64,000 nucleotides of DNA, taken from the NCBI GenBank assembly GCA_958295735.1, contig OY282369.1, positions 2,642,983 through 2,706,982 of the forward strand, written 5' to 3'. Positions within the stretch are counted from its first letter, which is position 1. Each line of letters begins with the position of its first letter. The DNA comes from an uncultured Candidatus Cenarchaeum sp. Its GTDB lineage: Archaea; Thermoproteota; Nitrososphaeria; Nitrososphaerales; Nitrosopumilaceae. Position numbers and translations under genes: made by a program. Below the pieces are notes generated by a model that did not search any database, was not told the DNA's origin, and saw nothing but the letters and a program-made list of their open reading frames with translations. This document shows, in pieces, positions 21,150 to 48,545 of the stretch.

Positions 21150-21890
21150 ATGAGGGCCGAGGCGGCGGAGAAGACCGCGAGGGCCGGGGTGATGCGGAAG
21201 ATCAGGGAGCGCGGCTACTGGGAGATCGTGCTGGAGCCGCCGGCCGGCCGGCCCGGGGACGAAAAAATCGCGTACGACGAGCTGGTGCGCCTGGTCAAGG
21301 ACAACGGGGCGAGGCGCAGGGGCATGCCCTACCCGTTCATGAAGAGGACGGAGTTCAGCGACTACGGGAACGCCGGAGGGCGCCTGGAGTCGTCCCTGCA
21401 CTACGCGTCGCACCTGTCCTCGTTCGCGTTCCACCCGAGCGGCCGGTTCGTCCAGCATCTGGGAATGCCAGAGGACAGGCGGGACGACGCCGCGCGCCCG
21501 TTCGTCCCGTGGGATTATGCCATGCAGAACCCCCGGCCCGATCCCCCGTTCCTCGGCTTCAGGTCTACGATACACCAGCTGACCGAGATCTTCCTGTTCG
21601 CCTCCAGGCTCGCATCCCTGGGCGTCTTCGGGGATCGCGCGAGGATCCTGGTCAGGCTGCACGGCACGGGCGGCCGCGTCCTGGAGTTCGACGCCCCGCC
21701 GTCCCTCTTCGGGCGGCACGAGTGCGGCACGGACACGATCGAGGCCGCCGATGTGGTGAAAACCCCCTTCGAGCTGATGCTGGAGCGCGACGAACTCGCG
21801 GTCGATGCCTGCATCGGCGTATTCGGGCTTTTCGGCTTCGCCTCCGAGCACACGCGGGGCGCCCTGAAGAGCGCGCAGGAATCGCTCTGA
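21150..21890 (+). CDS. Hypothetical protein next to the GHKL array
   Basis: I do not recognise this 246-residue protein. It reads as a soluble globular protein, with RERGYWEIVLEPP near the start, HYASHLSSFAFHPSGRFVQH in the middle and LGFRSTIHQLTEIFLFASRL, FGDRARILVRLHG and RVLEFDAPP later. There is no signal peptide, membrane helix or obvious nucleotide-binding loop. The start ATG 21150 follows a purine-rich GGGGGGAAGGAACG. It points towards the oldest kinase-like pseudogene (22081-24299) and converges with it. Its place beside restriction and GHKL genes hints at a defence or signalling role, but that is context only. Confidence 0.7.
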   Translation: MRAEAAEKTARAGVMRKIRERGYWEIVLEPPAGRPGDEKIAYDELVRLVKDNGARRRGMPYPFMKRTEFSDYGNAGGRLESSLHYASHLSSFAFHPSGRFVQHLGMPEDRRDDAARPFVPWDYAMQNPRPDPPFLGFRSTIHQLTEIFLFASRLASLGVFGDRARILVRLHGTGGRVLEFDAPPSLFGRHECGTDTIEAADVVKTPFELMLERDELAVDACIGVFGLFGFASEHTRGALKSAQESL

Positions 21891-21918
21891 CGGCGGAGAC
21901 GCGCGGCGGAGGTGCGGG

Positions 21919-21934
21919 CGCGCGCCAAAAAAAT
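21919..21934 (-). terminator. Possible T-tract terminator after the 22081-24299 gene
   Basis: On the minus strand a T7 run (GATTTTTTTGGCGCGC) lies about 150 bp beyond the stop at 22081. A matching arrangement with T8 occurs at 24562-24578, after the gene ending at 24730. Both are embedded in the same GCGCGC context. Oligo-T tracts terminate archaeal transcription. Confidence 0.45.
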
Positions 21935-22080
21935 CAACGGGAATTGTTCGGCGCGCGGGCCGGCCGTGACTGTTCGGGGACGCGGCGGGCGCCGGCCCGC
22001 GGCGGAGCCCGGCAGGAACCCGCCGCCCGCCGCCGCCCGCCGCCTCCGGCCCTTTCCGCGTCCCGCCGCCCCCGCGGGCG

Positions 22081-24299
22081 CTATTTCCCGGCCGCCTCGA
22101 ACGTGAACGCCACGATCGCGCCGCCGCGGAACTCCTCCGGGATGCGGTACTCCCCCCATTCCGGGAACGACAGGCGGCCCCCGTCCGCGGCCATGATCTC
22201 CCGCGCGACGTGGAGTCCGAGGCCCGTCCCGCCGGGCCTTGAGGTCACCCCCGGCTCCGCCAGCGCGCCCGCGGGAAGCGGGAATCCCGGCCCGTTGTCC
22301 GCGAGCAGCAGCGTCGTCGCGCCGCCGGGCTCGGGGCACGCGGAGGCGAACACCTTCTTGTCCGGAGCCCCCGCGTAGTCGAGCCACCACACGGAGTTGT
22401 CCAGGGCGCTCATCAGGCAGGTGACCGCGTGGCTGCGGGAGCACCTGATCCTCGCCGCCGCGGCCGCGTCCCTGCCCCCGAACACCGTCGCGATCCCGCG
22501 GTCCCTGAACCTGGATTCCATGTTGGACAGGGCGTGGTCGATGATCTGGAGGGCCGGCCACGCGCGGGGCCCGAGCGTCATCATCGTGATCTCGTACCCC
22601 CGCACGATCTTTTCCAGATGCCGCGCGGCCGCGGCGATCCCGCCCTGCAGGCCCTCCCTCTCCAGGGACTCGCCGAGCTCCCCCGCGGCCTTTTCCATCT
22701 CGTGTATGGCGACGCACATGTTCAGGCCGGCCCCCGCGCTGCGGAGGAGGGTGGCGCGGGTCGCCGCATAGTCCCTTTCCATCCTGTCCATGGCCGCGGA
22801 CAGCTCCGCCCCCAGCTTTTCGTCGGCGACCCCGCGTATGGCGCGCCTCATTTCCGCCATCCGCGAGATCACCGGCTCGCTCCTCGGCGTCGGGCCGTAG
22901 TGCTCCCTCATCCTCGCCTTGTCCGTCCCGCGCTGGCCCTCCACCCTTTCGAGCGCGCACAGCACGGCCTTGGCGAGCGCCAGGTACGCATCGTTCTCCA
23001 CGAACCCCTCCCTGTTGGTCTTTTCCCTCAGGTCGGCGCTCCCTTCCCCGTCCAGATGCACGGATGCGAGCACCATGCCGCTGCCGATCCTGGCCCCGGG
23101 CGGGCCCTCCGGCCTCGCGCCCAGGCCCAGCCAGTCGTTTCCGGGCTCACCGTAGCCGTGCACGCGCATCCCGTCCCGGAAGACCCTGACCCCGCCGTTC
23201 CGGTCGAGGTACTCCTCCAGCCCCGCCCGTTCTCCCGCCTTGCGCAGCGCCTGCAGCCCGAGCTTCAGCACCATGGGATCCCGGTCGAACACCGCCCCCT
23301 CGAAGCGCACCTTCCCTGTCCTGTGCCTGGACAGGTCTATGGGGCTCCCGTCCCGGTCCGCCATCGCCGCGCCCCCCCGGAGTCGCCGCCCTCCGTGACG
23401 CGGCGCGGCTTTATCTTGCCCATGGACGGCCACGGCTCGAACCTGTAGTCGAACCTCACGATCCTGTCCCCGTCCATCTCGCACTCGAACCGGAACAGGG
23501 CGAGCTCGTCCACGTCCTTTTCGGACAGCATCCCCTCCAGCCACTCTTCCTTGTCCGTGGAGAACTCCGTCCTGAACGCGCCCCCCGGGCCGCCCGGCGG
23601 CCGCAGCGAAGCGCACGACCTGTAGACGGCCCTCGGCATCCTCCTGTCCCACGCCCCCCTGAGATCTCTTACCGTGATCCTGGTGCCCGTCCTCCCCCCC
23701 GCGAACACTTCCGGCTCGCGCTCCTCCGCCGGGATCGGGACGTCTTCCAGGTACCCGGCGCCCCCGAACGCGCCCCAGTCTATTATAACGCGGACCTCCC
23801 CGCCCGCCTTCCTGGTCACCAGCTCTATAGAGTCCCCGAGCTTGTGGGCCGCGAACCTCCCTATTCACTTCTTCCCCAGGACGGTCCTGCCGAACCGCTC
23901 CGTGGTCCGGCGCCCCCGCTCCCCCTTGTAGTCCGTCCCGGGCTCCATCCACGCGCCCAGCACGGTCTCCACGTCCATGCCGGCCCCGTCGTCTTCCACC
24001 GTTACGGCGCCGCCGGCCTCCGCGCCCAGGCCGTTCACGGCCAGCGAGACGCGCGTCGCGTCGGCATCGTACGAGTTCTTCGCGAGCTCGAGCACCGCCA
24101 CGCCCTCGTTCCCCACCATCTCGTCGCCGAGCCGGAGCAGCAGCCTGGCCTTGGGCCTGAAGCGCGCCTCCGCGCCCCGCGGCCCGCCCTGTTCTGCATC
24201 CGCCGCCCGGGCCGCGCCCCGCGCATCCGGGCGGCCCCAAAAGCCCGCGGACTCCCGGCGCGCGGGCTCTTTCCGCCGCGGGAGGGGAAGCGCCCGCAT
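22081..24299 (-). pseudogene. Double-GHKL ATPase, copy 0, inactivated
   Basis: This is the most diverged member of the array. Conserved blocks include the N-terminal ATPase (ELAKNSYDADAT, VEDDGAGMD), the helical region with AIHEMEKAAG, and the kinase-type ATPase (MSALDNSVWWLD, LLADNGPGF, GGTGLGLHVA). A stop codon replaces Gly in the motif GxKGIGRFA (LGKK-stop-IGRFAAHKLG, near 23865). A frameshift near 23370 follows GGDSGG. ATG 24299 is 28 nt from a TATA-like TTCAAAAC box, as in the other copies. The receiver partner expected downstream is absent. Confidence 0.85.
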
Positions 24300-24561
24300 C
24301 GTACTGCACGTGTCAGGCAGCGGTTCAAAACTTTTGCGGATCCGCCAGTCTCTCATGATCGCGCCCGCGGCGGCCCCGGCGGGGCCCGCAGATCCCGGGC
24401 GCGGCCCCGGCACTGCTGCGCAAGGATCCGCGCGGCCGAGCATCCTGGTTCCCGGGGCGGGGCGGCCGCGGGCCCCGGCCCCGGCGGCGGGGCCTGCCGG
24501 GCGCGCCGGGGCCGCGCCCGTCCGCGTCCGGCTACGGGGCGGCGGGCGGCGGAGGGGCGGG

Positions 24562-25722: not shown

Positions 25723-27852
25723 TCAGGCGCGATCACTCTTGCCTCCCCCCTCGAAGGTGAGCGCCACGATCGCCCCGCCGCGGAACTCCTCGGGAATCCC
25801 GCACTCTCCCCATTCCGGGAAGGACAGGCCGCCGCCGCCCGCGACCATGATCTCCTGCGCTATGTGTAGCCCGAGGCCCATCCCGCCCGGCCTCGACGTC
25901 ACTCCCGGCTCCGTTATCACCCCCGTGGGGAGCGAGAACCCCGGCCCGTTGTCGGCGATCAGGAGCGTCGTCCCGCCGTCCGGTTCCCGGCGCGTCGTGA
26001 CGAAGATCTTCTTGCCCGGCGCGCCCGCGTAGTCGAGCCACCACACGGAGTTGTCCAGGGCGTTCATCATGCAGGTGACCGCGTGGCTTCGGGAGCACTT
26101 GATCTTCGCTGCCTCGGCCGCGTCCCGGCCCTCGAAGACTGTCTCGATCACGTGGTCCTTGAACAGGAATTCCATGTTGAACAGGGCCTGCTCTATCAGC
26201 TCGCGGGCCGACCACGTGCCGGGCGCGCGCGACCTTACCGAGAGCGCGTACCCCTCCACGAGTTTTTCCAGATGCAGCGCGAGCGAGGTGATCCAGTCGG
26301 GCGTGCCCTCCTTCTCCTTCAAAAACTTGCCGATGCTCCTCACGGCCTTGTCCATCTCGTGCACCGCGACGCCCATGTTCAGGCCGGCCCCGGCGCTGCG
26401 GAGGAGCGTGGCGTGGATCGACGCGTAGTCTTTTTCTATGCGGTCCATGGCCGCGGACAGTTCCCCCCTCAACTTTTCGTCCGCGACCCCGCGCACGGCG
26501 CGCTTCACCCCTGCTATCTGCGAGATCACCGGCTCGCCCCTCGGCGTCGGGCCGTAGAGCTCCCTGATCTTCGCCCTGTCGATCCTGCGCTGGTCCTCCA
26601 CCCTTTCCAGGGCGTACAGCACGGCCCCGGCGAACGCCCGGTACGCCTCGTTTTCCAGGAATCCCTCCCTGTTGGTCTTTTCCTTCAGGTCCGCGCTCTT
26701 TTCCCCGACCAGATGCACGGATGCGAGCATCATGCCGTTGCCGATCCTCGCCCCGGGCAGGCCCTCCTGCCTCGCGCCAAGTTCCAGCCAGTCGCTGCCC
26801 GGCTCCCCGTAGTCGTGCACGCGCATCCCGTCCCGGAATACCCTGACCCCGCCGTTGCGGTCCAGGTACTCCTCCAGCCCCGCTTTTTCTCCCGCCTTGC
26901 GCAGCGCCTGCAGCCCGAGCTTCAGCACCATGGGATCCCGGTCGAACACGCTCCCCTTGAAGCGCACCCTCCCTATCCTGTGGCGGGACAGGTCTATCGG
27001 GCGGTTGTCCGCGTCCCTCATCGCCATGGCCTTCCTGAAGTCGCCGCTCTCCGTGACGCGGCGCGGCTCCAGCTTGCTCATGGACGGCCACGGCTCGAAC
27101 CTGTAGTCGAACCTCACGATCCTGTCCCCCGCCATCTCGCACTCGAACCGGAACAGGGCTAGCCCGTCCACGTCGTCCCCGGACAGCATCCCCTCCACCC
27201 ACTCCTCCCTGTCCGTGGAAAACTCCGTCCTGAACGCGTTCCCTGAATCGCGCGGGGACCGCAGCGAGTTGTACGACCGGCAGACCGCCCTCAGCATCCT
27301 CCTGTCCCACGCCCCCCTGAGGTTCCTTACCGTGATCCTGGTGCCCGTCCTCCCCCCGGCGAACACTTCCGGATCGCGCTCCTCCACCGAGATCGGGATG
27401 TCCTCCAAGTATTCGGCGTCCCTGAACGCGTTCCAGTCTATCATGACGCGGACCTCCTTCCTGCCGGACCTCCTGGTCACCAGCTCTATCGAGTCCCCGA
27501 GCTTGTGGGCCGCGAACCTCCCTATTCCCTTCTCCCCCAGGACGGTCCTCCCGAATTTTTCCGTCTCCCGGCGCCCCCGCTCCCCCTTGTAGTCCGTCCC
27601 GGGCTCCATCCACACGCCCAGCACGGTCTCCATGTCCATGCCCGACCCGTCGTCCTCGACCGTTATGGTGCCGCCGGCCCCCGTGCCCAGGCCGTTCACG
27701 GCCAGCGAGACGCGCGTCGCGTCGGCGTCGTAGGCGTTCTTCGCGAGCTCGAGCACCGCCACGCCCTCGTTCCTTACCAGCTCGTCCCCGAGCTGGAGCA
27801 GCAGCCTGGCCCTGGGCCTGAAGGGCGCCTTGGCGCCCTGCGGCCCGCTCAA
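25723..27852 (-). CDS. Double-GHKL ATPase (kinase-like), copy A
   Basis: This 709-residue protein has all motifs described for copy C. N-terminal GHKL ATPase: ELAKNAYDADAT, VEDDGSGMD, GEKGIGRFAAHKLG. Helical region: NMGVAVHEMDKAV. Kinase-type ATPase: MNALDNSVWWLD, IADNGPGF, GGMGLGLHIAQEIM. The in-frame start is TTG 27852, overlapping the TGA of a 28-codon leader frame (ATG 27935) as TTGA. The leader's ATG occupies the leaderless position 28 nt from the TATA box. The region before MSGPQGAK, read in the kinase frame, still resembles the longer N-termini of copies C-E. A one-base change near the start is therefore the likely origin of the leader. Confidence 0.85.
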   Translation of the reverse strand: MSGPQGAKAPFRPRARLLLQLGDELVRNEGVAVLELAKNAYDADATRVSLAVNGLGTGAGGTITVEDDGSGMDMETVLGVWMEPGTDYKGERGRRETEKFGRTVLGEKGIGRFAAHKLGDSIELVTRRSGRKEVRVMIDWNAFRDAEYLEDIPISVEERDPEVFAGGRTGTRITVRNLRGAWDRRMLRAVCRSYNSLRSPRDSGNAFRTEFSTDREEWVEGMLSGDDVDGLALFRFECEMAGDRIVRFDYRFEPWPSMSKLEPRRVTESGDFRKAMAMRDADNRPIDLSRHRIGRVRFKGSVFDRDPMVLKLGLQALRKAGEKAGLEEYLDRNGGVRVFRDGMRVHDYGEPGSDWLELGARQEGLPGARIGNGMMLASVHLVGEKSADLKEKTNREGFLENEAYRAFAGAVLYALERVEDQRRIDRAKIRELYGPTPRGEPVISQIAGVKRAVRGVADEKLRGELSAAMDRIEKDYASIHATLLRSAGAGLNMGVAVHEMDKAVRSIGKFLKEKEGTPDWITSLALHLEKLVEGYALSVRSRAPGTWSARELIEQALFNMEFLFKDHVIETVFEGRDAAEAAKIKCSRSHAVTCMMNALDNSVWWLDYAGAPGKKIFVTTRREPDGGTTLLIADNGPGFSLPTGVITEPGVTSRPGGMGLGLHIAQEIMVAGGGGLSFPEWGECGIPEEFRGGAIVALTFEGGGKSDRA

Positions 27853-28007: not shown

Positions 28008-29343
28008 CTAGGGCCTCAGGCTGACCACGCCGGTCCTGCTCACGTGGTTCGACAGTTTCGACTGTATGTCCGCCAGCAGCTCGCTCTGCAGGGCGAAGGC
28101 GGGGTCCCTCAGGCGCGGGTCGCCGATGTCCACGGACGTGAACCGCCTGAGGTCGAACACCATGTAGTACAGATCGCCCTCCAGGAACATGACGGGCGAC
28201 GTATACGCGTATTCTGCGCTCTTGATGTGCTTCCTCTTCAGGAGACTGCCCGGCAGCATCACCCCCGGCAGCAGCCTGTGCGCGCGCATTTTCTCCTCCG
28301 CAAAGTCGCACGCGGGGGTGACCTCCAGCACCACGTGCTTGATGCGGCCCCTGAGATCTTCCTTTCCCGGCATGTCCCTCTGTAGGAGATCGTCCAACTC
28401 AGCTCGCGGGATCGGGGAGGCGGAGCCTTCGCCCCGCGGCTCGCCGTTGTGGTACACGCTGCCGGGCGCCGGCTCGTCGACCGCATCCTTCGTCAGCAGC
28501 CAGCTGTTGATTTTGCCGGTATGGCTGTAGGAATTCGCCCCGCCTCGGCCCTCGGCCCTGGGCGCGCCCAGATCCGGCGCGCTGTCCCGGAGGGATCTGC
28601 GCGTCTCGCGGTGTACCGCATCGGCGAGGGTGGTGTTCAGCGCGTACAGCGCCTTTTCGACAACCTTCGCGGGCTCCTGCCCGGCTGCCCTCCCCCCGCC
28701 CACGGCCCTGGCGAGGCCCCCGATCGCTTCCAGCAGCTTGTCGCTCCATTCGCGGTCTATGGAGCCCGCATCCCGCCGATCCGGGCCCCGGGCCGGGGCC
28801 TCCGCTCCCCCGCACTCGGCATCCGCGGCGTGCAGGTCCGAAAGCCTGCGCACAATGTCCTCGCACGCGCGGTGCGCGCTGTTCTCCCACATCATGAACA
28901 GCTGCAGCGCAGATGCCTCCTTCACGGACATCCGTACTCCCGCCCGGATTTTCACCAGGTCGAACCCTTCTTTATTTCTGCAGTCGTCTTTCTCCATAAT
29001 CGCGGGCACGAACCTGAACCCCGACTCCCTCAGGATTTTTTTTACGGCCTCCGCCTTCCCGACGTTGTCCGTCCAAAAGATCAGGACGAACGGCCCGTTC
29101 TTCTTCGGATCCACTACGTGCTTCACGTTTTCGGCTATGGCGGGCACTGCTTCGTCGGTTGTTGTGTCACCTAGAACTAGGTCAAGGAACACGATCCGCA
29201 CGCCGTCCAGCGGTTTTTTCTGGAAGATCCTTCGGGTTGGCCGTTAGGAGTGTCGCCATGTGCCCGCCCTTTACGAGCGCGCGGAGGAGGGGCCGCCCGT
29301 CGTCTTCCTTGTCGTCTATGATCACGATCCCACCGCCGGGCAT
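28008..29343 (-). pseudogene. Receiver-domain partner of copy B, frameshifted at an A6 run
   Basis: ATG 29343 begins MPGGGIVIIDDKEDDG, the acidic pocket of a receiver domain. After LPEK the coding strand has six A where the intact copy at 31696-33030 has five (near 29213-29218). This shifts the frame just before the phosphoacceptor block VRIVFLDL. The rest continues in the other frame to HVSRTGVVSLRP-stop and is otherwise well preserved. An internal start could make a receiverless C-terminal protein of 397 residues. It lies 64 bp after copy B on the same strand, so one transcript is likely. Confidence 0.8.
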
Positions 29344-29407: not shown

Positions 29408-31540
29408 TCAGGCGCGATCAGTCTCGCCTCCCCCCTTGAAGGTGAACGCCACGATCGCGCCGCCGCGGAACTCGTCGGGAATCTCGTACTCCCCCCATTC
29501 CGGGAAGGACAGGCGGCCGCCGCTCGCGACCATGATCTCCTGCGCGATGTGGAGGCCGAGGCCCATCCCGCCGGGCCTCGAGGTCACCCCGGGCTCCGCC
29601 ACGATGTCCGTGGGGAGCGAGAATCCCGGCCCGTTGTCGGCGATCAGCATCGTCGTCCCGCCGTCTGGTTCCCGGCGCGTGGTGACGAAGATCCTCTTGT
29701 CCGCCGCTCCCGCGTAGTCGAGCCACCATATGGAATTGTCCAGGGCGTTCATCACGCAGGTGACCGCGTGGCTGCGGGAGCACTTGATCTTCGCCGCCTC
29801 GGCCGCGTCCCTGCCCTCGAATACCGCCTCGATCCCGTGGTCCCTGAACACGAATTCCATGTTGAACAGGGCGTGCTCTATGATCTGGCAGGCCGACCAC
29901 GTGCCGGGCGCGCGCGACCTTACCGCGAGCGCGTACCCCTCCACGAGCTTTTCCAGGTGCAGCACGAGCGAGGTGATCCAGTCGGGCGTGCCCTCCTTCT
30001 CCTTCAAGAACTTGCCGATGCTCCTCACGGCCTTGTCCATCTCGTGCACCGCGACGCCCATGTTCAGGCCGGCCCCGGCGCTGCGGAGGAGGGTGGCGTG
30101 GATCGACGCGTAGTCTTTTTCTATCCGGTCCATGGATGCGGACAGTTCCCCCCTCAGTTTTTCGTCGGCGACCCCGCGCACGGCGCGCTTCACCCCCGCT
30201 ATCTGCGAGATCACCGGCTCGCCCCTCGGCGTCGGGCCGTAGAGCACCCTTACCCTGGCCTTGTCGATCCTGCGCTGGTCCTCCACCCTTTCCAGGGCGT
30301 ACAGCACGGCCCCGGCGAACGCCTGGTACGCCTCGTTTTCAACGAACCCTTCCCTGTTGGTCTTTTCCTTCAGGTCCGCGCTCCCTTCGCCGTCCAGATG
30401 CACGGTTGCGAGAATCAAGTTGTTGCCGATCCTCGCCCCGGGCAGGCCCTCCTGCCTCATGCCCAGCTCCAGCCAGTCGCTGCCCGGCTCCCCGTAGTCG
30501 TACACGCGCATCCCTTCCCGGAAGACCCTGACCCCGCCGTTGCGGTCCAGGTACTCCTCCAGCCCCGCTTTTTCGCCCGCCTTGCGCAGCGCCTGCGGGC
30601 CGAGCTTTAAGACCATGGGATCCCGGTCGAACACGCTCCCCCCGAAGCGCACCTTCCCTATCTTGTGGCGGGACAGGTCTATCGGGCGGTTGTCCGCGTC
30701 CCTCATCGCCATGGCCTTCCCGAAGTCGCCGCCCTCCGTGACGCGGCGCGGCTTTATCTTGACCATGGACGGCCACGGCTCGAACCTGTAGTCGAACCTC
30801 ACGATCCTGTCCCCCGCCATCTCGCACTCGAACCGGAACAGGGCGAGCCCGTCCACGTCGTCCCCGGACAGCATCCCCTCCAGCCACTCTTCCCTGTCCG
30901 TGGAAAACTCCGTCCCGAACGCGTCCCCTGAATCGCGCGGGGACCGCAGCGAGCTGTACGACCTGTAGATGGCCCTCAGCATCCTCCTGTCCCACGCCCC
31001 CCTGAGGTTCCTTATCGTGATCCTGGTGCCCGTCCTCCCCCCGGCGAACTCTACGGGCTCGCGTTCCTCCACCGTGATCGGGACGTCCTCCAGGTACTCG
31101 GCGTCCCCGAACGCGTTCCAGTCTATCATGACGCGGACCTCCTTCCTGCCGGACCTCCTGGTCACCAGCTCGATCGAGTCCCCGAGCTTGTGGGCCGCGA
31201 ACCTCCCTATTCCCTTCTCCCCCAGGACGGTCCTGCCGAATTTTTCCGTCTCCCGGCGCCCCCGCTCCCCCTTGTAGTCCGTCCCGGGTTCCATCCACAC
31301 GCCCAGCACGGTCTCTACATCCATGCCCGCCCCGTCGTCCTCGACCGTTATGGTGCCGCCGTCCTCCGAGCTCGGGCAGTTCACGGCCAGCGAGACGCGC
31401 GTCGCGTCCGCGTCGTACGCGTTCTTCACGAGCTCGAGCACCGCCACGCTCTCGTTCCTTATCAGCTCGTCCCCGAGCTGGAGCAGCAGCCTGGCCCTGG
31501 GCCTGAAGAACGCCTTTACCGCGCCCTGCGGCCCGCTCAA
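29408..31540 (-). CDS. Double-GHKL ATPase (kinase-like), copy B
   Basis: This 710-residue protein is closest to copies A and E. It has ELVKNAYDADAT and VEDDGAGMD in the first ATPase, NMGVAVHEMDKAV in the helical region, and MNALDNSIWWLD, IADNGPGF and GGMGLGLHIAQ in the second. The TTG 31540 start overlaps the stop of a 28-codon leader (ATG 31623), with 5' sequence nearly identical to copy A. The two probably arose by recent duplication or gene conversion. Its receiver partner follows but is frameshifted. Confidence 0.85.
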   Translation of the reverse strand: MSGPQGAVKAFFRPRARLLLQLGDELIRNESVAVLELVKNAYDADATRVSLAVNCPSSEDGGTITVEDDGAGMDVETVLGVWMEPGTDYKGERGRRETEKFGRTVLGEKGIGRFAAHKLGDSIELVTRRSGRKEVRVMIDWNAFGDAEYLEDVPITVEEREPVEFAGGRTGTRITIRNLRGAWDRRMLRAIYRSYSSLRSPRDSGDAFGTEFSTDREEWLEGMLSGDDVDGLALFRFECEMAGDRIVRFDYRFEPWPSMVKIKPRRVTEGGDFGKAMAMRDADNRPIDLSRHKIGKVRFGGSVFDRDPMVLKLGPQALRKAGEKAGLEEYLDRNGGVRVFREGMRVYDYGEPGSDWLELGMRQEGLPGARIGNNLILATVHLDGEGSADLKEKTNREGFVENEAYQAFAGAVLYALERVEDQRRIDKARVRVLYGPTPRGEPVISQIAGVKRAVRGVADEKLRGELSASMDRIEKDYASIHATLLRSAGAGLNMGVAVHEMDKAVRSIGKFLKEKEGTPDWITSLVLHLEKLVEGYALAVRSRAPGTWSACQIIEHALFNMEFVFRDHGIEAVFEGRDAAEAAKIKCSRSHAVTCVMNALDNSIWWLDYAGAADKRIFVTTRREPDGGTTMLIADNGPGFSLPTDIVAEPGVTSRPGGMGLGLHIAQEIMVASGGRLSFPEWGEYEIPDEFRGGAIVAFTFKGGGETDRA

Positions 31541-33104: not shown

Positions 33105-35354
33105 TCACTCTTGCTTCCCCCCCTTGAAGGCGAACGCCACGATCGCCCCGCCGCGGAACTCCTCGGGGACGTCGCATTCCCCCGGCTCCGGGAAGTACAG
33201 GCGGCCGCCGTTCGCGACCATCATCTCCTGCGCTATGTGTAGCCCGAGGCCCATCCCGCCCGGCCTCGACGTCACTCCCGGCTCCGTTATCACCCCCGTG
33301 GGGAGCGAGAACCCCGGCCCGTTGTCGGCGATCAGGAGCGTCGTCCCGCCGTCCGGTTCCCGGCGCGTTGTGATGAAGATCTTCTTGCCCGGCGCGCCCG
33401 CGTAGTCGAGCCACCACACGGAGTTGTCCAGGGCGTTCATCATGCAGGTGACCGCGTGGCTTCGGGAGCACTCGATCTTTGCCGCCTTGGCCGCGTCCCG
33501 GCCCTCGAAGACTATCTCGATCCCGTGGTCCTTGAACCTGGATTCCATGTAGAACAGGGCGTGCTCTATCAACTCGCGGGCCGACCAAGTGCCGGGCGCG
33601 CGCGTCATTATAGTCAGTTCGTACCCCTTGACGAGCCCTTCCAGGCGCGTGATCAGCGAGACGTTCCATTCGGGAGTGCTTTCTTTCTTCTTCCTCAGGA
33701 TTTTGCCGAGCTCCCTCACGATCTTGTACATTTCGTGCACCGCGACGCCCATGTTCAGGCCGGCCCCGGCGCTGCGGAGGAGCGTGGCGTGGATCGACGC
33801 GTAGTCTTTTTCTATCCGGTCCATGGATGCGGACAGTTCCCCCCTCAGTTTTTCGTCGGCGACCCCGCGCACGGCGCGCTTCACCCCCGCTATCTGCGAG
33901 ATCACCGGCTCGCCCCTCGGCGTCGGGCCGTAGATCTCCCTGATCTTCGCCTTGTCGATCCTGCGCTGGTCCTCCACCCTTTCCAGGGCGTACAGCACGG
34001 CCCCGGCGAACGCCCGGTACGCCTCGTTTTCCAGGAACCCCTCCCTGTTGGTCTTTTCCTTCAGGTCCGCGCTCTTTTCCCCGACCAGATGCACGGATGC
34101 GAGCATCATGCCGTTGCCGATCCTCGCCCCGGGCAGGCCCTCCGGCCTCGCGCCAAGTTCCAGCCAGTCGCTGCCCGGCTCCCCGTAGTCGTGCACGCGC
34201 ATCCCGTCCCGGAATACCCTGACCCCGCCGTTGCGGTCCAGGTACTCCTCCAGCCCCGCTTTTTCTCCCGCCTTGCGCAGCGCCTGCAGCCCGAGCTTCA
34301 GCACCATGGGATCCCGGTCGAACACGCTCCCCTTGAAGCGCACCCTCCCTATCCTGTGCCTGGACAGGTCTATCGGGCGGTTGTCCGCGTCCCTCATCGC
34401 CATGGCCTTCCTGAAGTCGCCGCTCTCCGTGACGCGGCGCGGCTCCAGCTTGCTCATGGACGGCCACGGCTCAAACCTGTAGTCGAACCTCACGATCCTG
34501 TCCCCCGCCATCTCGCACTCGAACCTGAACAGGGCTAGCCCGTCCACGTCCTTTTCGGACAGCATCCCTTCCACCCACTCTTCCCTGTCCGTGGAAAACT
34601 CCGTCCTGAACGCGTCCCCTGAATCGCGCGGGGACCGCAGCGAGTTGTACGACCGGCAGACCGCCCTCAGCATCCTCCTGTCCCACGCCCCCCTGAGGTT
34701 CCTTATCGTGATCCTGGTGCCCGTCCTCCCCCCGGCGAACTCCTCGGGCTCGCGCTCCTCGACCGAGATCGGGACGTCCTCCAAGTATTCGGCGTCCCTG
34801 AACGCGTTCCAGTCTATCATAACGCGGACCTCCTTCCTGCCGGACCTCCTGGTCACCAGCTCTATCGAGTCCCCGAGCTTGTGGGCCGCAAACCTCCCGA
34901 CCCCCTTCTCCCCCAGGACGGTCCTCCCGAATTTTTCCGTCTCCCGGCGCCCCCGCTCCCCCTTGTAGTCCGTCCCGGGTTCCATCCACACGCCCAGCAC
35001 GGTCTCTACATCCATGCCCGACCCGTCGTCCTCTACCGTTATGGTGCCGCCGGCCCCCGTGCCCAGGCCGTTCACGGCCAGCGAGACGCGCGTCGCGTCG
35101 GCGTCGTAGGCGTTCTTCGCGAGCTCTAGTACCGCCATGCCCTCGTTCCTTATCAGCTCGTCGCCGAGCTGTAGCAGCAGCCTGGCCCTGGGCCTGAAGA
35201 TCGCCTTTACCGCGCCCTGCGGCCCGCCCTGTTCTGCATCTGCTGCCTTGGCCGCAGCTGGGGGCATCGCTTTTTGGGCATCTAGGCGGCTCCAAAAGCC
35301 TGCAAATTCTTGGCGCGCGGGATGCTTCTGGAGCGGGCGGGGGACCACCTGCAT
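33105..35354 (-). CDS. Double-GHKL ATPase (kinase-like), copy C, best complete member
   Basis: This 749-residue protein has two ATP-binding folds. Residues about 55-330 match MutL/Hsp90-type GHKL ATPases: ELAKNAYDADAT (N-box, Asn 81), VEDDGSGMD (109-116) and GEKGVGRFAAHKLG (148-161). After a linker, a helical stretch carries GVAVHEMYK. His 540 sits where histidine kinases have their phosphoacceptor. Residues about 630-740 are a kinase-type ATPase: MNALDNSVWWLD, IADNGPGF (676-683) and GGMGLGLHIAQ. There is no signal peptide or membrane helix, so it is cytoplasmic. ATG 35354 lies 28 nt from a TATA box, indicating a leaderless message. Its receiver partner follows. Function is inferred from motifs only; phosphotransfer is unproven. 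Confidence 0.88.
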   Translation of the reverse strand: MQVVPRPLQKHPARQEFAGFWSRLDAQKAMPPAAAKAADAEQGGPQGAVKAIFRPRARLLLQLGDELIRNEGMAVLELAKNAYDADATRVSLAVNGLGTGAGGTITVEDDGSGMDVETVLGVWMEPGTDYKGERGRRETEKFGRTVLGEKGVGRFAAHKLGDSIELVTRRSGRKEVRVMIDWNAFRDAEYLEDVPISVEEREPEEFAGGRTGTRITIRNLRGAWDRRMLRAVCRSYNSLRSPRDSGDAFRTEFSTDREEWVEGMLSEKDVDGLALFRFECEMAGDRIVRFDYRFEPWPSMSKLEPRRVTESGDFRKAMAMRDADNRPIDLSRHRIGRVRFKGSVFDRDPMVLKLGLQALRKAGEKAGLEEYLDRNGGVRVFRDGMRVHDYGEPGSDWLELGARPEGLPGARIGNGMMLASVHLVGEKSADLKEKTNREGFLENEAYRAFAGAVLYALERVEDQRRIDKAKIREIYGPTPRGEPVISQIAGVKRAVRGVADEKLRGELSASMDRIEKDYASIHATLLRSAGAGLNMGVAVHEMYKIVRELGKILRKKKESTPEWNVSLITRLEGLVKGYELTIMTRAPGTWSARELIEHALFYMESRFKDHGIEIVFEGRDAAKAAKIECSRSHAVTCMMNALDNSVWWLDYAGAPGKKIFITTRREPDGGTTLLIADNGPGFSLPTGVITEPGVTSRPGGMGLGLHIAQEMMVANGGRLYFPEPGECDVPEEFRGGAIVAFAFKGGKQE

Positions 35355-35403: not shown

Positions 35404-35595
35404 GGTACTGTTGTACGGAAATCATGTCACCTGCCAGTTCGCGTCCTCCTCCATCCGGCGGGGGTTGCTCTTCTTGATCACCCCCGCGTTTTCCTTGCTA
35501 AGAATGCCATGAACGGGGGCCCTCGCGAGCGCGCGGAGGAGGGGCCGCCCGTCGCCTTCGTCGTCGTCTGTGATCACGATTCCGCCGCCGGGCAT
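35404..35595 (-). pseudogene. Receiver partner of copy D truncated by an IS481-like tail
   Basis: ATG 35595 begins MPGGGIVITDDDEGDGRPLLRAL, matching the receiver N-terminus. It then runs into LSKENAGVIKKSNPRR and EDANWQVT-stop. The second part resembles the transposase end at 55060-55140 (FSARKATRAIKKNSPG, then GAGGACGCGAAC). At 35404-35426 the sequence is a worn version of that element's 23-bp terminal repeat. An IS evidently inserted into the receiver gene and then mostly disappeared, leaving a 57-residue chimera without the phosphoacceptor Asp. Confidence 0.75.
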
Positions 35596-35659: not shown

Positions 35660-37900
35660 TCAGGCGCGATCACCATTTCCTCCCTCCTTGAAAACGAACG
35701 CCACGATCGCCCCGCCGCGGTACTCCTCCGGAATCCTGTACTCCCCCCATTCCGGGAATGACAGGCTGCCGCCGCTCAAGATCATGATCTCCCGCGCGAT
35801 GTGGAGCCCGAGGCCCATCCCGCCCGGCCTCGAGGTCACCCCCGGCTCCGCCACCAGGTCCGTGGGCAGCGAGAATCCCGGCCCGTTGTCGGCGATCAGC
35901 AGCGCCGTTCCGCCGCCGGGCTCCCCGTGCGTGGTGATGAAGATCTTCTTGTCCGCCGCTCCCGCGTAGTCGAGCCACCACACGGAGTTGTCCAGGGCGT
36001 TCATTATGCAGGTGACCGCGTGGCTTCGGGAGCACTCGATCTCCGCCGCCTCTGCCGCGTCCCGGCCCTCGAAGACTATATCGATCCCGTGGGCTTTGAA
36101 CCTGAATTCCATGTTGAACAGGGCGTGCTCTATGACCCGGCGGGCCGACCACGCGCAGGGCTCGCGCGTCATCATCGTCAACTCGTACCCCTGCACGAGC
36201 TTTTCCAGATGCAGTATGAGCGCGGTGATCCTGCCGGGCAGGTCCCTCTCGTCTTTCAAGGACTCGCCGAGTTCCCCCACCGCCTTGTCCATCTCGTGTA
36301 TCGCGACGCCCAAGTTCAGGCCGGCCCCCGCGCTGCGGAGGAGGGTGGCGTGGATCGCAGCGTAGTCTCTTTCTATCCGGTCCATGGATGCGGACAGTTC
36401 CGCCCTCAGTTCCTCATCTGCCACCCTCGCGCCTATGGCGCGCTTCACCCCGGCTATCTGCGAGATCACCGGCTCCCCCCTCGGCGTCGGGCCGTAGATC
36501 TCCCTGATCTTCGCCTTGTCGATCCTGCGCTGGTCCTCCACCCTCTCCAGGGCGTACAGCACGGCCCCGGCGAACGCCCGGTACGCCTCGTCCTCTACGA
36601 ACCCTTCCCTGTTGGTCTTTTCCTTCAGGTCCGCGCTCTCTTCCCCGACCAGATGCACGGTTGCGAGCAGTATGCCGTTGCCGATCCTCGCCCCGGGCAG
36701 GCCCTCCTGCCTCGCGCCAAGTTCCAGCCAGTCGCTGCCGGGCTCCCCGTAGTCGTACACGCGCATCCCGTCCCGGAAGACCCTGACCCCCCCGTTCCGG
36801 TCCAGGTACTCCTCCAGCCCCGCCCGTTCTCCCGCCTTGCGCAGCGCCTGCAGCCCGAGTTTTAGGACCATGGGATCCCGGTCGAACACGCTCCCCCCGA
36901 AGCGCACCTTCCCTATCTCGTGGCGGGACAGGTCTATCGGGCGGTTGTCCGCGTCCCTCATCGCCATGGCCTTCCCGAAGTCGCCGCCCTCCGTGACGCG
37001 GCGCGGCTTTATCTTGCCCATGGACGGCCACGGCTCGAACCTGTAGTCGAACTTCGTGATCCTGCCCCCGTCCATCTCGCACTCGAACCGGAACAGGGCG
37101 AGCCCGTCCACGTCTTCTCTGGACAGCATCCCCTCCACCCACTCTTCCCTGTCCGTGGAAAACACCGTCCTGAACGCGTCCCCTGAATCGCGCGGGGATC
37201 GCAGCGAGCTGTACGACCTGTAGGCAGCCCTCAGCATCCTCCTGTCCCACGCCCCCCTGAGATCCCGCACGGTGATTCTGGTGCCCGTCCTCCCCCCGGA
37301 GAACTCTTCGGGCTCGCGCTCTTCGACCGAGATCGGGACGTCCTCCAAGTATTCGGCGTCCCCGAACGAGTTCCAGTCTATCACGACGCGGACTTCCTTC
37401 CTGCCGGACCTCCTGGTCACCAGCTCGATCGAGTCCCCGAGCTTGTGTGCCGCGAACCTCCCTATTCCTTTCTCCCCCAGGACGGTCCTGCCGAACCGCT
37501 TCGTCGTCCGCCGTTTGTGGTCTCTCTTGTAGCCGGTTCCCGGCTCCATCCACACGCCCAGCACGGTCTCCATGTCCATGCCCGACCCGTCGTCCTCGAC
37601 CGTTATGGTGCCGCCGTCCTCCGAGCCAGGGCAGTTCACGGCCAGCGAGACGCGCGTCGCGTCGGCGTCGTAGGCGTTCTTCGCGAGCTCTAGTACCGCC
37701 ATGCCCTCGTTCCTTACCAGCTCGTCCCCGAGCTGTAGCAGCAGCCTGGCCCTGGGCCTGAAGAACGCCTTCGTCGCGCCCGGCGGCCCACCCTGTTCTG
37801 CATCCGCCGCCGGGGCCGGGCCTCGTGCATCCGGGCGGCCCCTGTAGCCCGCGAGTTTCCGGAGCGCGGACTCCCTTCGCGCGGCGGGGGGCGCTTGCAT
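35660..37900 (-). CDS. Double-GHKL ATPase (kinase-like), copy D
   Basis: This 746-residue protein starts at ATG 37900, 27 nt from its TATA box. It keeps every motif (ELAKNAYDADAT, VEDDGSGMD, GEKGIGRFAAHKLG, NLGVAIHEMDKAV, MNALDNSVWWLD, IADNGPGF, GGMGLGLHIAREIM). It is more diverged around GYKRDHKRRTTKRFG, in the helical region (DERDLPGRITALI) and in an extra residue at AIGARVADEELR. It remains open although its own receiver gene is destroyed. That suggests it acts alone or uses another copy's partner. Confidence 0.85.
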   Translation of the reverse strand: MQAPPAARRESALRKLAGYRGRPDARGPAPAADAEQGGPPGATKAFFRPRARLLLQLGDELVRNEGMAVLELAKNAYDADATRVSLAVNCPGSEDGGTITVEDDGSGMDMETVLGVWMEPGTGYKRDHKRRTTKRFGRTVLGEKGIGRFAAHKLGDSIELVTRRSGRKEVRVVIDWNSFGDAEYLEDVPISVEEREPEEFSGGRTGTRITVRDLRGAWDRRMLRAAYRSYSSLRSPRDSGDAFRTVFSTDREEWVEGMLSREDVDGLALFRFECEMDGGRITKFDYRFEPWPSMGKIKPRRVTEGGDFGKAMAMRDADNRPIDLSRHEIGKVRFGGSVFDRDPMVLKLGLQALRKAGERAGLEEYLDRNGGVRVFRDGMRVYDYGEPGSDWLELGARQEGLPGARIGNGILLATVHLVGEESADLKEKTNREGFVEDEAYRAFAGAVLYALERVEDQRRIDKAKIREIYGPTPRGEPVISQIAGVKRAIGARVADEELRAELSASMDRIERDYAAIHATLLRSAGAGLNLGVAIHEMDKAVGELGESLKDERDLPGRITALILHLEKLVQGYELTMMTREPCAWSARRVIEHALFNMEFRFKAHGIDIVFEGRDAAEAAEIECSRSHAVTCIMNALDNSVWWLDYAGAADKKIFITTHGEPGGGTALLIADNGPGFSLPTDLVAEPGVTSRPGGMGLGLHIAREIMILSGGSLSFPEWGEYRIPEEYRGGAIVAFVFKEGGNGDRA

Positions 37901-37961: not shown

Positions 37962-39315
37962 TCACTTCCCCTCGGGCCTCGGGCTTACCACGCCCGTCCT
38001 GCTCACGTGGTTCGACAGCTTCGACTGCATGTCCGCCAGCAGCTCGCTCTGCAGGGCGAAGGCGGGGTACCTCAGGCGCGGGTCGCCGATCTCCACGGAC
38101 GTGAACCGCCTGAAGTCGAACACTATGTGGTGCAGATCGCCCTCCAGGCGCATGACGGGCGACACGTACGCGTATTCTGCCCCCCTGACGTGCCTCCTCA
38201 TCACGAGACTGCTCGGCAGCATCACCCCCGGCAGCAGCCTGTGCTGCGCATTTTCTCCTCCGCATGGTCGCACGCGGGGGTGACCTCCAGCACCACGTGC
38301 TTGATGCGGCCCCCGAGATCCTCCTTTTCCGGCGTCTCCTTCTGCAGGAGATCGTCCACCTCGGCGCGCGGGATCGGGGCGGCGGAGCCGGAGACGCCTT
38401 CCGGCGGCTCGCCGTTCGGGTACACGCTGCCGGGCGCCGGCTCGTCGCCCGCATCACTTGTCAGCCGCCAGTTGTTGATTTTGCCGACGTAATCGTCCGC
38501 ATTAGCCCTGTTGCGGCCCGGGGCGCGGGGCGCGCCCAGATCCGGCGCGCTGCTTCGGAGGGAGCCGCGCGTCTCGCGGTGTATCGCATCGCCGAGGGCG
38601 GTGTTCAGCGCGTACAGCGCTTTTTCGGCGACTTTCGCGGGTTCCAAGCCGGCCGCCCTCCCCCCGCCCACGGCCCTGGCGAGGCCCCCGATCGCTTCCA
38701 GCAACTTGCCGTCCCATTCCCGGTCCACGGAGTCCGCATCCCGCCGATCCGTGTCCCGGGCCGGGGCCCCTGCCCCCCCGCACTCGGCATCCGCGCCGTG
38801 CAGGTCTGAAAGCTTGCGCACTATGCCTCCGCACGCGCGGCGCACGCTGTTCTCCCACAGCATGAACAGCTGCAGCGCCGATGCATCTTTCACGGACTTT
38901 TGCACCCCCGCCCGGATTTTCTCCAGGTCGAATTCCCCTTCTTCATTCCCGCACTCCCTCTTTTTCATCATCGCGGACGTGAATTTGAACCCGGACTCCC
39001 TCAAGGCTTTTTTCGCGGCTTCCGCCTCCCTGCTCTTGTTCGTCCAGAGGATCAAGACGAACGGCCCGTTCTTCTTCGGATCCACGGCGCGGCGCATCAC
39101 GCTTTCGACTGCGCCGGACACCGGCGTGTCCAGCGGCCAGCCGGAAAAAACCAGGTCGAGAAACACGATCCGCACGCCGTCCAGCGGTTTTTCTGGAAGA
39201 TCCTTCGGGTTGGCCGTTAGGAGTGTCGCCATGTGCCCGCCCTTGCGAGCGCGCGGAGGAGGGGCCGCCCGTCGTCCTCCTTGTCGTCTATGATCACGAT
39301 CCCGCCGCCCGGCAT
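37962..39315 (-). pseudogene. Receiver partner of copy E, two frameshifts
   Basis: It begins at ATG 39315 (MPGG, acidic receiver start). One base is missing near 39243 compared with the intact copy. The main frame runs from MATLLTANPKDLPEKPLDG through VRIVFLDLVFSGW and VLILWTNKS to EVTPACDHAEEKMR. There a second one-base loss near 38245 shifts the frame. The end (LLADMQSKLSNHVSRTGVVSPRP) is still readable. The C-terminal half has drifted more than in the other copies (RRHVRGAEYAYVSPVMRLEGDLHHIVFD). Confidence 0.8.
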
Positions 39316-39376: not shown

Positions 39377-41632
39377 TCAGGCGTCATCATTCTCGCCTCC
39401 CCCCTTGAAGGTGAGCGCCACGATCGCGCCGCCGCGGTACTCCTCCGGGATCCCGCACTCTCCCCATTCCGGGAAGGACAGGCGGCCGCCGCTCGCGACC
39501 ATGATCTCCTGCACTATGTGGAGCCCGAGGCCCATCCCGCCGGGCCTCGAGGTCACCCCGGGCTCCGTCACGATGTCCGTGGGGAGCGAGAATCCCGGCC
39601 CGTTGTCGGCGATCAGCATCGTCGTCCCGCCGTCCGGTTCCCGGCGCGTGGTGACGAAGATCCTCTTGTCCGCCGCTCCCGCGTAGTCGAGCCACCATAT
39701 GGAATTGTCCAGGGCGTTCATCACGCAGGTGACCGCGTGGCTGCGGGAGCACTTGATCTTCGCAGCCTCGGCAGCGTCACGGCCCTCGAATACCGCCTCG
39801 ATCCCGTGGTCCCTGAACACGAATTCCATGTTGAACATGGCGTGCTCTATGATCTGGCAGGCCGACCACGTGCCGGGCGCGCGCGACCTTACCGCGAGCG
39901 CGTACCCCTCCACGAGCTTTTCCAGGTGCAGCACGAGCGTGGTGATCCTGCCGGGCAGGCCCTCCCTGTTCTTCAGGGACTCGCTGAGTTCCCCCACGGC
40001 CTTGTCCATCTCGTGTATCGTGACGCACATGTTCAGGCCGGCCCCCGCGCTGCGGAGGAGGGTGGCGTGGATCGCCGTGTAGTCTTTTTCTATCCGGTCC
40101 ATGGATGCGGACAGTTTCTCCCTCAGTTTTTCGTCGGCGACTCCGCGTATGGAGCGCTTCACCTCCGCTATCTGCGAGATCACCGGCTCGCCCCTCGGCG
40201 TCGGGCCGTAGATCTCCCTTACCCTGGCCTTGTCGATCCTGCGCTGGTCCTCCACCCTTTCCAGGGCGTACAGCACGGCCCCGGCGAACGCCCGGTACGC
40301 CTCGTCCTCGACGAACCCCTCCCTGTTGGTCTTTTCCTTCAGGTCCGCGCTCCCTTCGCCGTCCAGATGCACGGTTGCGAGAATCAAGTTGTTGCCGATC
40401 CTCGCCCCGGGCAGGCCCTCCTGCCTCATGCCCAGCTCCAGCCAGTCGCTGCCCGGCTCCCCGTAGTCGTACACGCGCATCCCTTCCCGGAAGACCCTGA
40501 CCCCGCCGTTGCGGTCCAGGTACTCCTCCAGCCCCGCCCGTTCCCCCGCCTTGCGCAGCACCTGCAGGCCGAGCTTGAGGACCATGGGATCCCGGTCGAA
40601 CACGCTCCCCCCGAAGCGCACCTTCCCTATCCTGTGGCGGGACAGGTCTATCGGGCGGTTGTCCGCGTCCCTCATCACCATGGCCTTCCCGAAGTCGCCG
40701 CCCTCCGTGACGCGGCGCGGCTTTATCTTGCCCATGGACGGCCACGGCTCGAACCTGTAGTCGAACCTCACGATCCTGTCCCCCGCCATCTCGCACTCGA
40801 ACCGGAACAGGGCGAGCCCGTCCACCTCCTCCCCGGACAGCATTCCCTCTACCCACTCTTCCCTGTCCGTGGAAAACTCCGTCCTGAACGCGTCCCCCGG
40901 GCCGCCCGGGGATCGCAGCGAGCTGTACGACCTGTAGATGGCCCTCAGCATCCTCCTGTCCCACGCCCCCCTGAGATCCCTTACCGTGATCCTGGTGCCC
41001 GTCCTCCCCCCGGCGAACTCTACGGGCTCGCGCTCCTCCACCGAGATCGGGACGTCCTCCAGGTACTCGGCGTCCCCGAACGCGTTCCAGTCTATCATGA
41101 CGCGGACCTCCTTCCTGCCGGACTTCCTGGTCACCAGCTCGATCGAGTCCCCGAGCTTGTGGGCCGCGAACCTCCCGACCCCCTTCTCCCCCAGGACGGT
41201 CCTGCCGAATTTTTCCGTCGCCCGCCGCCCCCGTTCCCCCTTGTAGCCGGTTCCCGGCTCCATCCACACGCCCAGCACGGTCTCCATGTCCATGCCCGCC
41301 CCGTCGTCCTCGACCGTTATGGTGCCGCCGTCCTCCGAGCTCGGGCAGTTCACGGCCAGCGAGACGCGCGTCGCGTCCGCGTCGTACGCGTTCTTCACGA
41401 GCTCGAGCACAGCCACGCTCTCGTTCCTTATCAGCTCGTCCCCGAGCTGGAGCAGCAGCCTGGCCCTGGGCCTGAAGAACGCCTTTACCGCGCCCTGCGG
41501 CCCGCCCTGTTCCGCGACCGCCGCCCGGGCCGCAGCTAGGTTCGTCGTCTTTTGGGCATCCAGGCGGCTCCACAAGCCCGCGAATTCCCGGCGCGCGGGC
41601 TCCCTCTGGGGCGGGCGGGCGACCACTCGCAT
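39377..41632 (-). CDS. Double-GHKL ATPase (kinase-like), copy E
   Basis: This 751-residue protein has ATG 41632 (MRVVARPPQREPARREFAG) 28 nt from a CTTAAAAAC-type TATA box. I prefer this over the upstream in-frame ATG 41743 because the promoter spacing and N-terminus match copy C. Motifs are intact: ELVKNAYDADAT, VEDDGAGMD, GEKGVGRFAAHKLG, NMCVTIHEMDKAV, MNALDNSIWWLD, IADNGPGF, GGMGLGLHIVQEIM. It is the most upstream member, transcribed towards the rest, 62 bp before a frameshifted receiver gene. Confidence 0.85.
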   Translation of the reverse strand: MRVVARPPQREPARREFAGLWSRLDAQKTTNLAAARAAVAEQGGPQGAVKAFFRPRARLLLQLGDELIRNESVAVLELVKNAYDADATRVSLAVNCPSSEDGGTITVEDDGAGMDMETVLGVWMEPGTGYKGERGRRATEKFGRTVLGEKGVGRFAAHKLGDSIELVTRKSGRKEVRVMIDWNAFGDAEYLEDVPISVEEREPVEFAGGRTGTRITVRDLRGAWDRRMLRAIYRSYSSLRSPGGPGDAFRTEFSTDREEWVEGMLSGEEVDGLALFRFECEMAGDRIVRFDYRFEPWPSMGKIKPRRVTEGGDFGKAMVMRDADNRPIDLSRHRIGKVRFGGSVFDRDPMVLKLGLQVLRKAGERAGLEEYLDRNGGVRVFREGMRVYDYGEPGSDWLELGMRQEGLPGARIGNNLILATVHLDGEGSADLKEKTNREGFVEDEAYRAFAGAVLYALERVEDQRRIDKARVREIYGPTPRGEPVISQIAEVKRSIRGVADEKLREKLSASMDRIEKDYTAIHATLLRSAGAGLNMCVTIHEMDKAVGELSESLKNREGLPGRITTLVLHLEKLVEGYALAVRSRAPGTWSACQIIEHAMFNMEFVFRDHGIEAVFEGRDAAEAAKIKCSRSHAVTCVMNALDNSIWWLDYAGAADKRIFVTTRREPDGGTTMLIADNGPGFSLPTDIVTEPGVTSRPGGMGLGLHIVQEIMVASGGRLSFPEWGECGIPEEYRGGAIVALTFKGGGENDDA

Positions 41633-41654
41633 CGTCTTGTACGGGTCAGGTAAC

Positions 41655-41665
41655 GGCTTAAAAAC
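41655..41665 (-). promoter_or_regulatory. TATA box of copy E
   Basis: GTTTTTAAGCC on the minus strand is centred about 28 nt upstream of ATG 41632. Confidence 0.65.
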
Positions 41666-41688
41666 TTTCGAAGGCCTGGTCCGTACGA

Positions 41689-41863
41689 GGTCAGCAACCC
41701 CCGCTTCGCAAGCGTGAACGCGGATCAACGTAGTCGTTTTCACGCCTGCGGCCAGCAGGTACGTGACCCCATGCCCCGGTCCGTATGTCCACGCACCCGC
41801 CAGTCACGGGCGCGAAAACCACGTTGAACCGGATTCACGCCTGTGGTGAGGGGGTTGCCGACC
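41689..41863. mobile_element. MITE-like inverted-repeat element, about 175 bp
   Basis: The left arm (41689-41746, GGTCAGCAACCCCC, GCGTGAACGCGGATCAACGT, TTTTCACGCC) pairs with the reverse complement of the right arm (41809-41863, GGTCGGCAACCCCC, GCGTGAATCCGGTTCAACGT, TTTTCGCGCC). The 60-bp core has no reading frame. It resembles a miniature inverted-repeat element or a large cruciform between the array and the helicase gene. Confidence 0.55.

Positions 41864-42129: not shown

Positions 42130-48545
<6,416 letters not shown>

What the first reader, a model, noticed from the sequence alone, without database searches (positions are those of the whole stretch)
21150..41700. Tandem array of double-GHKL ATPases paired with atypical receiver proteins
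Six copies of a protein of about 750 residues with two different ATP-binding GHKL folds and a histidine in HEM(D/Y/E)K each precede a receiver-like gene, its remnant or its vestige. The receiver protein has no recognisable output domain but a well-conserved C-terminus. Two-component logic with a MutL/Hsp90-type module added, expanded in tandem next to restriction and helicase-nuclease genes, suggests an undescribed signalling or defence system. Motifs are seen directly; phosphotransfer and defence are inferences.
Basis: partly seen in the sequence, partly recalled or inferred. Interest (0 to 1): 0.88.

Follow-up and report, generated by a model that had tools for sequence, protein, structure and literature searches.

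The report
MORC-type histidine kinase–receiver tandem array
An ammonia-oxidising archaeon related to the sponge symbiont Cenarchaeum carries six tandem copies of an unnamed two-gene signalling switch that in bacteria almost always sits beside DNA-cytosine methylation genes; it joins a DNA-clamp-like ATPase to a histidine kinase and its receiver, and nobody has yet tested what it does.

Summary
Six minus-strand copies (five open, one frameshifted) of a ~710-aa double-GHKL protein alternate with a receiver-like gene that is intact once (copy C), frameshifted in A and D, a 26-aa stub in B, only a start in E and absent after F. The N half resembles MORC/Hsp90 clamps, the C half a histidine kinase (HK853); the partner has a receiver fold with D11/D12, D55, W92-T93 and K120 conserved, plus a conserved C-terminal domain of unknown fold.

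At least 568 bacterial loci encode relatives. In the 80 best, 74 of 78 intact kinases are followed at once by the receiver gene (the other four lie at contig ends), and 70 of 78 loci carry a C5-cytosine methyltransferase, often as the preceding operon gene. The Cenarchaeum copies nest inside Bacteroidota-rich bacterial branches, so they were probably acquired from bacteria.

The kind is known: Bellieny-Rabelo et al. 2021 described HEF_HK/Response_reg_2 pairs with the same architecture and R-M linkage. But 0/64 kinases and 0/79 receivers here match PF19191/PF19192. This is an unnamed, compact sister family: new as a variant, not as a kind. Phosphotransfer, output and antiviral role are inferred.

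The parts
39377..41503 (-). Copy A, double-GHKL kinase (open frame to 41743; conserved start region 41503), HEMDK
37974..39315 (-). Copy A receiver, two frameshifts (near 39240 and 38243)
35660..37900 (-). Copy B, double-GHKL kinase, HEMDK
35521..35595 (-). Copy B receiver vestige (26 aa, first strand and helix only)
   Evidence: tblastn E 4.6e-6
33105..35354 (-). Copy C, double-GHKL kinase of the only intact pair, HEMYK; numbering used here (from 35225): E34, N38, D66, G68, K107 (N-terminal ATPase), K391 (transducer), H497, N597, N601, D634, G659, G661 (kinase)
31696..33030 (-). Copy C receiver, intact, 444 aa: receiver domain 1 to about 145 (D11, D12, D55, W92-T93, K120), helical linker, conserved C-terminal domain with C345-D346 and R436-x-G438
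29408..31540 (-). Copy D, double-GHKL kinase, HEMDK
28008..29343 (-). Copy D receiver, one frameshift in an A run within 29207-29220
25723..27852 (-). Copy E, double-GHKL kinase, HEMDK; receiver lost except leader and start codons
22081..24185 (-). Copy F, double-GHKL kinase broken by a frameshift in a G run (about 23350), HEMEK; no receiver after it

Best explanation
A cytosolic two-component switch that accompanies DNA-cytosine restriction-modification, acquired from bacteria and amplified in tandem. Steps supported by sequence and fold: (1) the N-terminal ~400 residues form a MORC/Hsp90-type GHKL + S5 ATPase expected to dimerise on ATP; (2) helices joined to it form a dimerisation/phosphotransfer hairpin carrying His497, followed by a kinase ATPase domain; (3) the next gene is a receiver with the acidic pair, Asp55, Thr and Lys needed for phosphotransfer. 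Inferred steps: the clamp senses DNA state or foreign DNA and, on closing, triggers phosphorylation of His497; phosphate passes to Asp55; the receiver's C-terminal domain then controls the linked methylation, restriction or repair proteins. In the archaeon only pair C is complete; the other kinases may share its receiver, act alone or be decaying.
For: Foldseek against PDB: N half to MORC2/MORC3/SMCHD1/TRAP1 (E ~1e-11), C half to the HK853 kinase of the HK853-RR468 complex (E ~3e-10). Profile search finds histidine kinases for residues ~500-680 and HtpG/endoplasmin/MutL for the N-terminus. The receiver model (pLDDT 88.7) matches Spo0F, ArcA and PmrA receivers, prob ~1.0 and TM ~0.58 by target length. 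H497 and the core residues of both ATP sites are invariant in 64 kinases; D55 is invariant in 79 receivers. 74 of 78 kinases are directly followed by the receiver gene, most often with a 4-nt overlap; the other four are at contig ends. Kinase-receiver distance correlation is 0.88, permuted maximum 0.09, against 0.28 for kinase-methyltransferase, so the pair moves as a unit between methyltransferases. C5 methyltransferase: 38 of 71 immediate upstream genes, 70 of 78 loci, none in 108 kb of control DNA from twelve of the same genomes; Vsr 13, HhH-GPD 6, MvaI/BcnI, EcoRII, XhoI among neighbours. Kinase copies have dN/dS 0.41-0.55.
Against: No biochemistry exists. The phosphotransfer hairpin is modelled with low confidence (pLDDT ~40-70 around 481-540). 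The receiver's C-terminal domain matched no known fold or family, so the output is unknown. In the window there is no C5 methyltransferase beside the array (the five in the genome lie elsewhere); the nearest R-M genes are an N4/N6 methyltransferase and a type III-like helicase. Only one of six receivers is intact.
Confidence: 0.55

Rival explanations
1. An ATP-driven MORC-like DNA motor of the R-M system in which the second GHKL domain and the receiver are structural relics: ATP use reorganises DNA-protein complexes and no phosphate is transferred.
For: MORC/paraMORC ATPases of R-M operons were proposed to loop DNA (PMC2292703); best fold matches are DNA-bound MORC2; the N domain resembles BbrUII/HgiDII restriction ATPases (NF050001 E 2.8e-22).
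Against: His497, the kinase N/G1/G2 boxes and receiver D55/K120 are invariant or nearly so across more than 60 sequences, which is not expected of relics.
Confidence: 0.2
2. A regulator of methyltransferase or repair expression (housekeeping of R-M and of 5-methylcytosine deamination damage) rather than a defence effector. This overlaps with the best explanation in anatomy and differs in purpose.
For: Operon with C5 methyltransferases and frequent Vsr or HhH-GPD glycosylase neighbours, families known to repair T:G mispairs from 5-methylcytosine; control of R-M was proposed for the sister family in PMC8011034.
Against: No DNA-binding output domain is recognisable in the receiver; restriction nucleases are also common neighbours.
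Confidence: 0.3
3. In this archaeon the array is a decaying selfish or neutral amplification with no present function.
For: Receivers broken or lost in five of six units, kinase F broken, mosaic gene conversion between copies (identical 300-nt block), transposases nearby, the pair not found in the congener G001.
Against: Five kinases remain open over 10.6 kb; frameshifts fall preferentially in receivers (Fisher p 0.02, bases treated as trials); dN/dS 0.41-0.55 indicates purifying selection; some frameshifts may be homopolymer assembly errors.
Confidence: 0.25

Closest known systems
HEF_HK / Response_reg_2 two-component-like pair (PF19191/PF19192; Bellieny-Rabelo et al. 2021, PMC8011034)
   Same: HATPase_c_3 + phosphotransfer helix pair + HATPase_c in one protein, receiver-like partner next door, soluble, linked to C5 methyltransferases, Vsr and type II R-M; whole-length profile homology of the kinase, hhalign prob 100, E 1e-62.
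   Different: None of 64 kinases or 79 receivers matches either Pfam model; the kinase lacks the ~280-aa coiled-coil segment of the two long reference HEF_HK proteins; the receiver is mostly ~420-480 aa against 561-644 aa and aligns to the reference partners only in a 26-aa C-terminal stretch; HEM replaces HEF in the window copies; occurs in archaea and as a tandem array.
MORC / paraMORC ATPases of R-M operons (Iyer et al. 2008, PMC2292703)
   Same: N-terminal GHKL + S5-type module, R-M neighbourhood.
   Different: Carries a C-terminal histidine-kinase core and a constant receiver partner, neither described for paraMORC1-5 in the passages read.
BbrUII/HgiDII GHKL restriction enzymes (NF050001)
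   Same: Similar N-terminal GHKL domain (E 2.8e-22, residues 20-185); ~18 further genes in this genome match the N domain only.
   Different: Score 79 against cut-off 550; the match ends after the first ATPase domain.
Detocs (DtcABC) anti-phage two-component system (recalled from own knowledge, not tested)
   Same: Histidine kinase and receiver used in phage defence.
   Different: Recalled as having a TPR-type sensing kinase and a phosphorylase-like output; no such domains found here.

Membership tests
HEF_HK/Response_reg_2 system | Kinase matches PF19191 | tested here: not met
   0 of 64 members at E<=0.1, and none for the window copies scanned at E<=10
HEF_HK/Response_reg_2 system | Partner matches PF19192 | tested here: not met
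   not among the 25 commonest families of 79 members at E<=0.1; none for the window receivers at E<=10
HEF_HK/Response_reg_2 system | Architecture HATPase_c_3 + H-box helices + HATPase_c | tested here: met
HEF_HK/Response_reg_2 system | Adjacent receiver gene and R-M / C5 methyltransferase linkage | tested here: met
   for bacterial relatives; in the window the receiver linkage holds but the C5 linkage does not
Two-component system | Kinase His in a helical hairpin plus N, G1, G2 boxes | tested here: met
   H497, N597/N601, D634-x-G-x-G, G659-x-G661 invariant; the hairpin itself has low pLDDT
Two-component system | Receiver fold with acidic pair, Asp, Thr/Ser, Lys | tested here: met
Two-component system | His to Asp phosphotransfer | not testable with these tools
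   needs purified proteins
MORC/paraMORC ATPase | GHKL + S5 module with conserved Lys in the transducer | tested here: met
   fold matches to MORC2/3; K391 in EKTNREGF invariant; assignment of K391 as the catalytic Lys is inferred
Anti-phage defence system | Protects against phage or virus | not tested
   no PADLOC match for the window receiver; needs plating assays

The most novel reading that the evidence does not exclude
A widespread, unnamed class of immune or epigenetic sensor in which a MORC-type DNA clamp directly drives a histidine kinase, so that the methylation state of DNA or the arrival of foreign DNA is read out as receiver phosphorylation; in a Cenarchaeum-like symbiont it has been amplified into an array of kinases whose phosphotransfer regions have diverged, tuning parallel or cross-talking channels.
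Probability: 0.2. Interest if true: 0.85.

Novelty: new variant of a known kind. Interest (0 to 1): 0.6.

Why it matters
If right, DNA-clamp ATPases of the MORC type, whose prokaryotic role is unknown, would be signal inputs of a phosphorelay, giving a directly testable link between DNA methylation status and two-component signalling. The family is large (at least 568 loci), not recognised by the Pfam, NCBIfam or PADLOC models searched for the receiver, and mobile on plasmids of cultivable Agrobacterium, Rhizobium and Burkholderia, so the test can be done in laboratory strains.

Tried and rejected
Viral contigs: no relative of copy D. PF19192 in 22 genomes that carry the pair: none (the search rang nowhere, so it is weak evidence). 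60 archaeal relatives: no other pair at single-sequence sensitivity; a profile search of 398 genomes of the phylum found two more, L169 and L170, which branch apart from the Cenarchaeum copies. Output domain of the receiver: no hit in Pfam, NCBIfam, PDB sequences or PDB/viral folds beyond the receiver part. Shared N4 methyltransferase between window and L169/L170: only remote similarity, 20-31%. The idea that the 246-aa gene at 21150-21890 is a third component: it has four copies in the genome, two of them beside a double-GHKL gene, but no counterpart was seen in the bacterial loci, so it was not included. Literature: no experimental paper on either Pfam family was found.

Full report
Observation. 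The window lies at 2,642,983-2,706,982 of a single 3.17-Mb contig. Its congener G001 has 2,045,086 bases in one contig, which I recognise from memory as the size of Cenarchaeum symbiosum A; the organism is therefore taken to be a Cenarchaeum-like, probably sponge-associated, ammonia-oxidising archaeon (inference). Six copies of a ~710-aa protein lie on the minus strand between 41.5 and 22.1 kb; relative to copy D the other open copies are 84-92% identical and the broken sixth 70-77%. The repeat unit is ~3.7 kb, shortened to 2.56 kb where copy B lost its receiver. Each has an N-terminal HATPase_c_3 and a C-terminal HATPase_c domain with HEM(D/Y/E)K between them. The receiver gene is intact only in unit C; A has two frameshifts, D one, B a 26-aa stub, E a start, F nothing. 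The D shift is A6 for A5, and the first A shift and the F shift also lie in or beside A/G runs, so assembly error cannot be excluded for these. A seventh, orphan kinase (72% identical) lies at 812,489-814,618 without a detectable receiver.

Domains and folds. The kinase model (pLDDT 81.6) matches MORC2, MORC3, SMCHD1 and TRAP1 with its N half and the HK853 histidine kinase with its C half; sequence profiles agree. The receiver model (pLDDT 88.7) matches response-regulator receivers. Its C-terminal ~170 residues are conserved (C345-D346, R436-x-G438) but match nothing. A P-x-C-D element occurs in one of three reference Response_reg_2 proteins and an R-x-G element in all three, so this output domain may be shared more widely.

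Relatives. Plasmids gave 206 records, best 36% identity over 98% in Agrobacterium, then Rhizobium and Burkholderia; in the closest ones a receiver-like gene follows, with Vsr, Dcm, EcoRII-like or HNH genes around. Of the 80 kept, 78 hold an intact kinase; 74 have a complete receiver gene at -41 to +85 nt, most often overlapping by 4 nt, and the other four are at contig ends. These 80 are the closest relatives, so the percentages apply to that set. D55 is invariant in 79 receivers, and H497 with the core residues of both ATP sites in 64 kinases. Kinase and receiver distances correlate at 0.88 (permuted maximum 0.09), kinase and upstream C5 methyltransferase at only 0.28 (38 loci): the pair moves as a unit and changes methyltransferase partners. 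A C5 methyltransferase is the immediate upstream gene in 38 of 71 loci and present in 70 of 78 (46 of 48 long ones), against none in 108 kb of control DNA from twelve of the same genomes.

Origin. In the kinase tree the Cenarchaeum copies and the orphan form one clade inside a bacterial, Bacteroidota-rich group (SH-aLRT 99-100), while two other archaeal pairs (L169, L170; found at profile sensitivity among 398 genomes of the phylum) branch elsewhere. This is a quick tree with compositional bias in the GC-rich rows, but the separation is strongly supported. Transfer from bacteria followed by duplication is the simplest reading.

Selection. Pairwise dN/dS of the five open kinases is 0.41-0.55, so they are not evolving neutrally. 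Divergence is concentrated at residues ~481-570, the phosphotransfer region (dN ~0.2, dN/dS 0.7-0.9), and in the receiver domain rather than the C-terminal domain of A, C and D. This fits insulation of paralogous pairs, but the same region is poorly conserved in bacteria as well, and part of the C-terminal similarity is gene conversion, so relaxed constraint is an equal explanation.

Known or new. Bellieny-Rabelo et al. [quoted passage not shown] I fetched three loci found with the HEF_HK Pfam model: the kinases are homologous over their whole length (E 1e-62), the long ones carrying an extra coiled-coil segment, while the receivers barely align. Neither Pfam model recognises members of the present family. 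Hence it works like that system and shares ancestry with it, but is not a member as Pfam defines it: a compact, unnamed sister family, here seen in archaea and as a tandem array. I found no experimental work on either.

Mechanism. Shown: gene pair, folds, conserved residues, operon with C5 methyltransferases in bacteria, purifying selection. Inferred: ATP-driven clamp closure as input, His497 to Asp55 transfer, C-terminal domain as output, control of restriction, methylation or repair. Confidence in two-component architecture ~0.85, in the full mechanism ~0.55, in an antiviral role specifically ~0.35.

Noticed in passing
window 21150-21890 (+); L041:9385-10134 (-): A 246-250-aa protein family without any Pfam match has four copies in this genome; one lies beside the orphan double-GHKL kinase directly after an SLFN_AlbA_2 gene (L041:10131-10715), one beside the array.
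   Followed up: partly
G000, e.g. C1:3057-6185, 45645-48662, 826929-830051, 2131738-2140048, 2617743-2620047: About 18 further genes whose N domain matches the array protein, many of ~660 aa like BbrUII/HgiDII GHKL restriction enzymes, several close together and one next to a C5 methyltransferase (2140248-2141234): a genome-wide expansion of GHKL restriction-type ATPases.
   Followed up: partly
G000:C1:3089950-3090057 (L040): A 36-aa relic of the receiver's C-terminal end (75% identity, E 4.6e-8) far from the array, suggesting further lost copies.
   Followed up: no
window 27833-28132 and 31521-31820: DNA around the 3' ends of receivers C and D is identical over 300 nt, a sign of recent gene conversion.
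   Followed up: no
window 42130-47550 (-): Helicase-nuclease with AAA_11/AAA_12 and MTES_1575 domains, closest to PDC-S37, ProA and Hhe anti-phage proteins; the N-terminal part of the open frame is probably not coding.
   Followed up: partly
window 15679-16959 and 17384-19678 (+): N4/N6 DNA methyltransferase followed by a type III-like restriction helicase.
   Followed up: partly
L169:5797-13000 and L170:6288-10787: Two further archaeal single-copy pairs directly beside an N4/N6-type methyltransferase, in L169 also a C5-methyltransferase-like and a Vsr-like gene (read from sequence, not profile-tested).
   Followed up: partly
window 24310-25690 (-): The receiver of unit E is replaced by an unrelated GC-rich, proline/alanine-rich stretch with a possible small membrane protein (24730-25506).
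   Followed up: no
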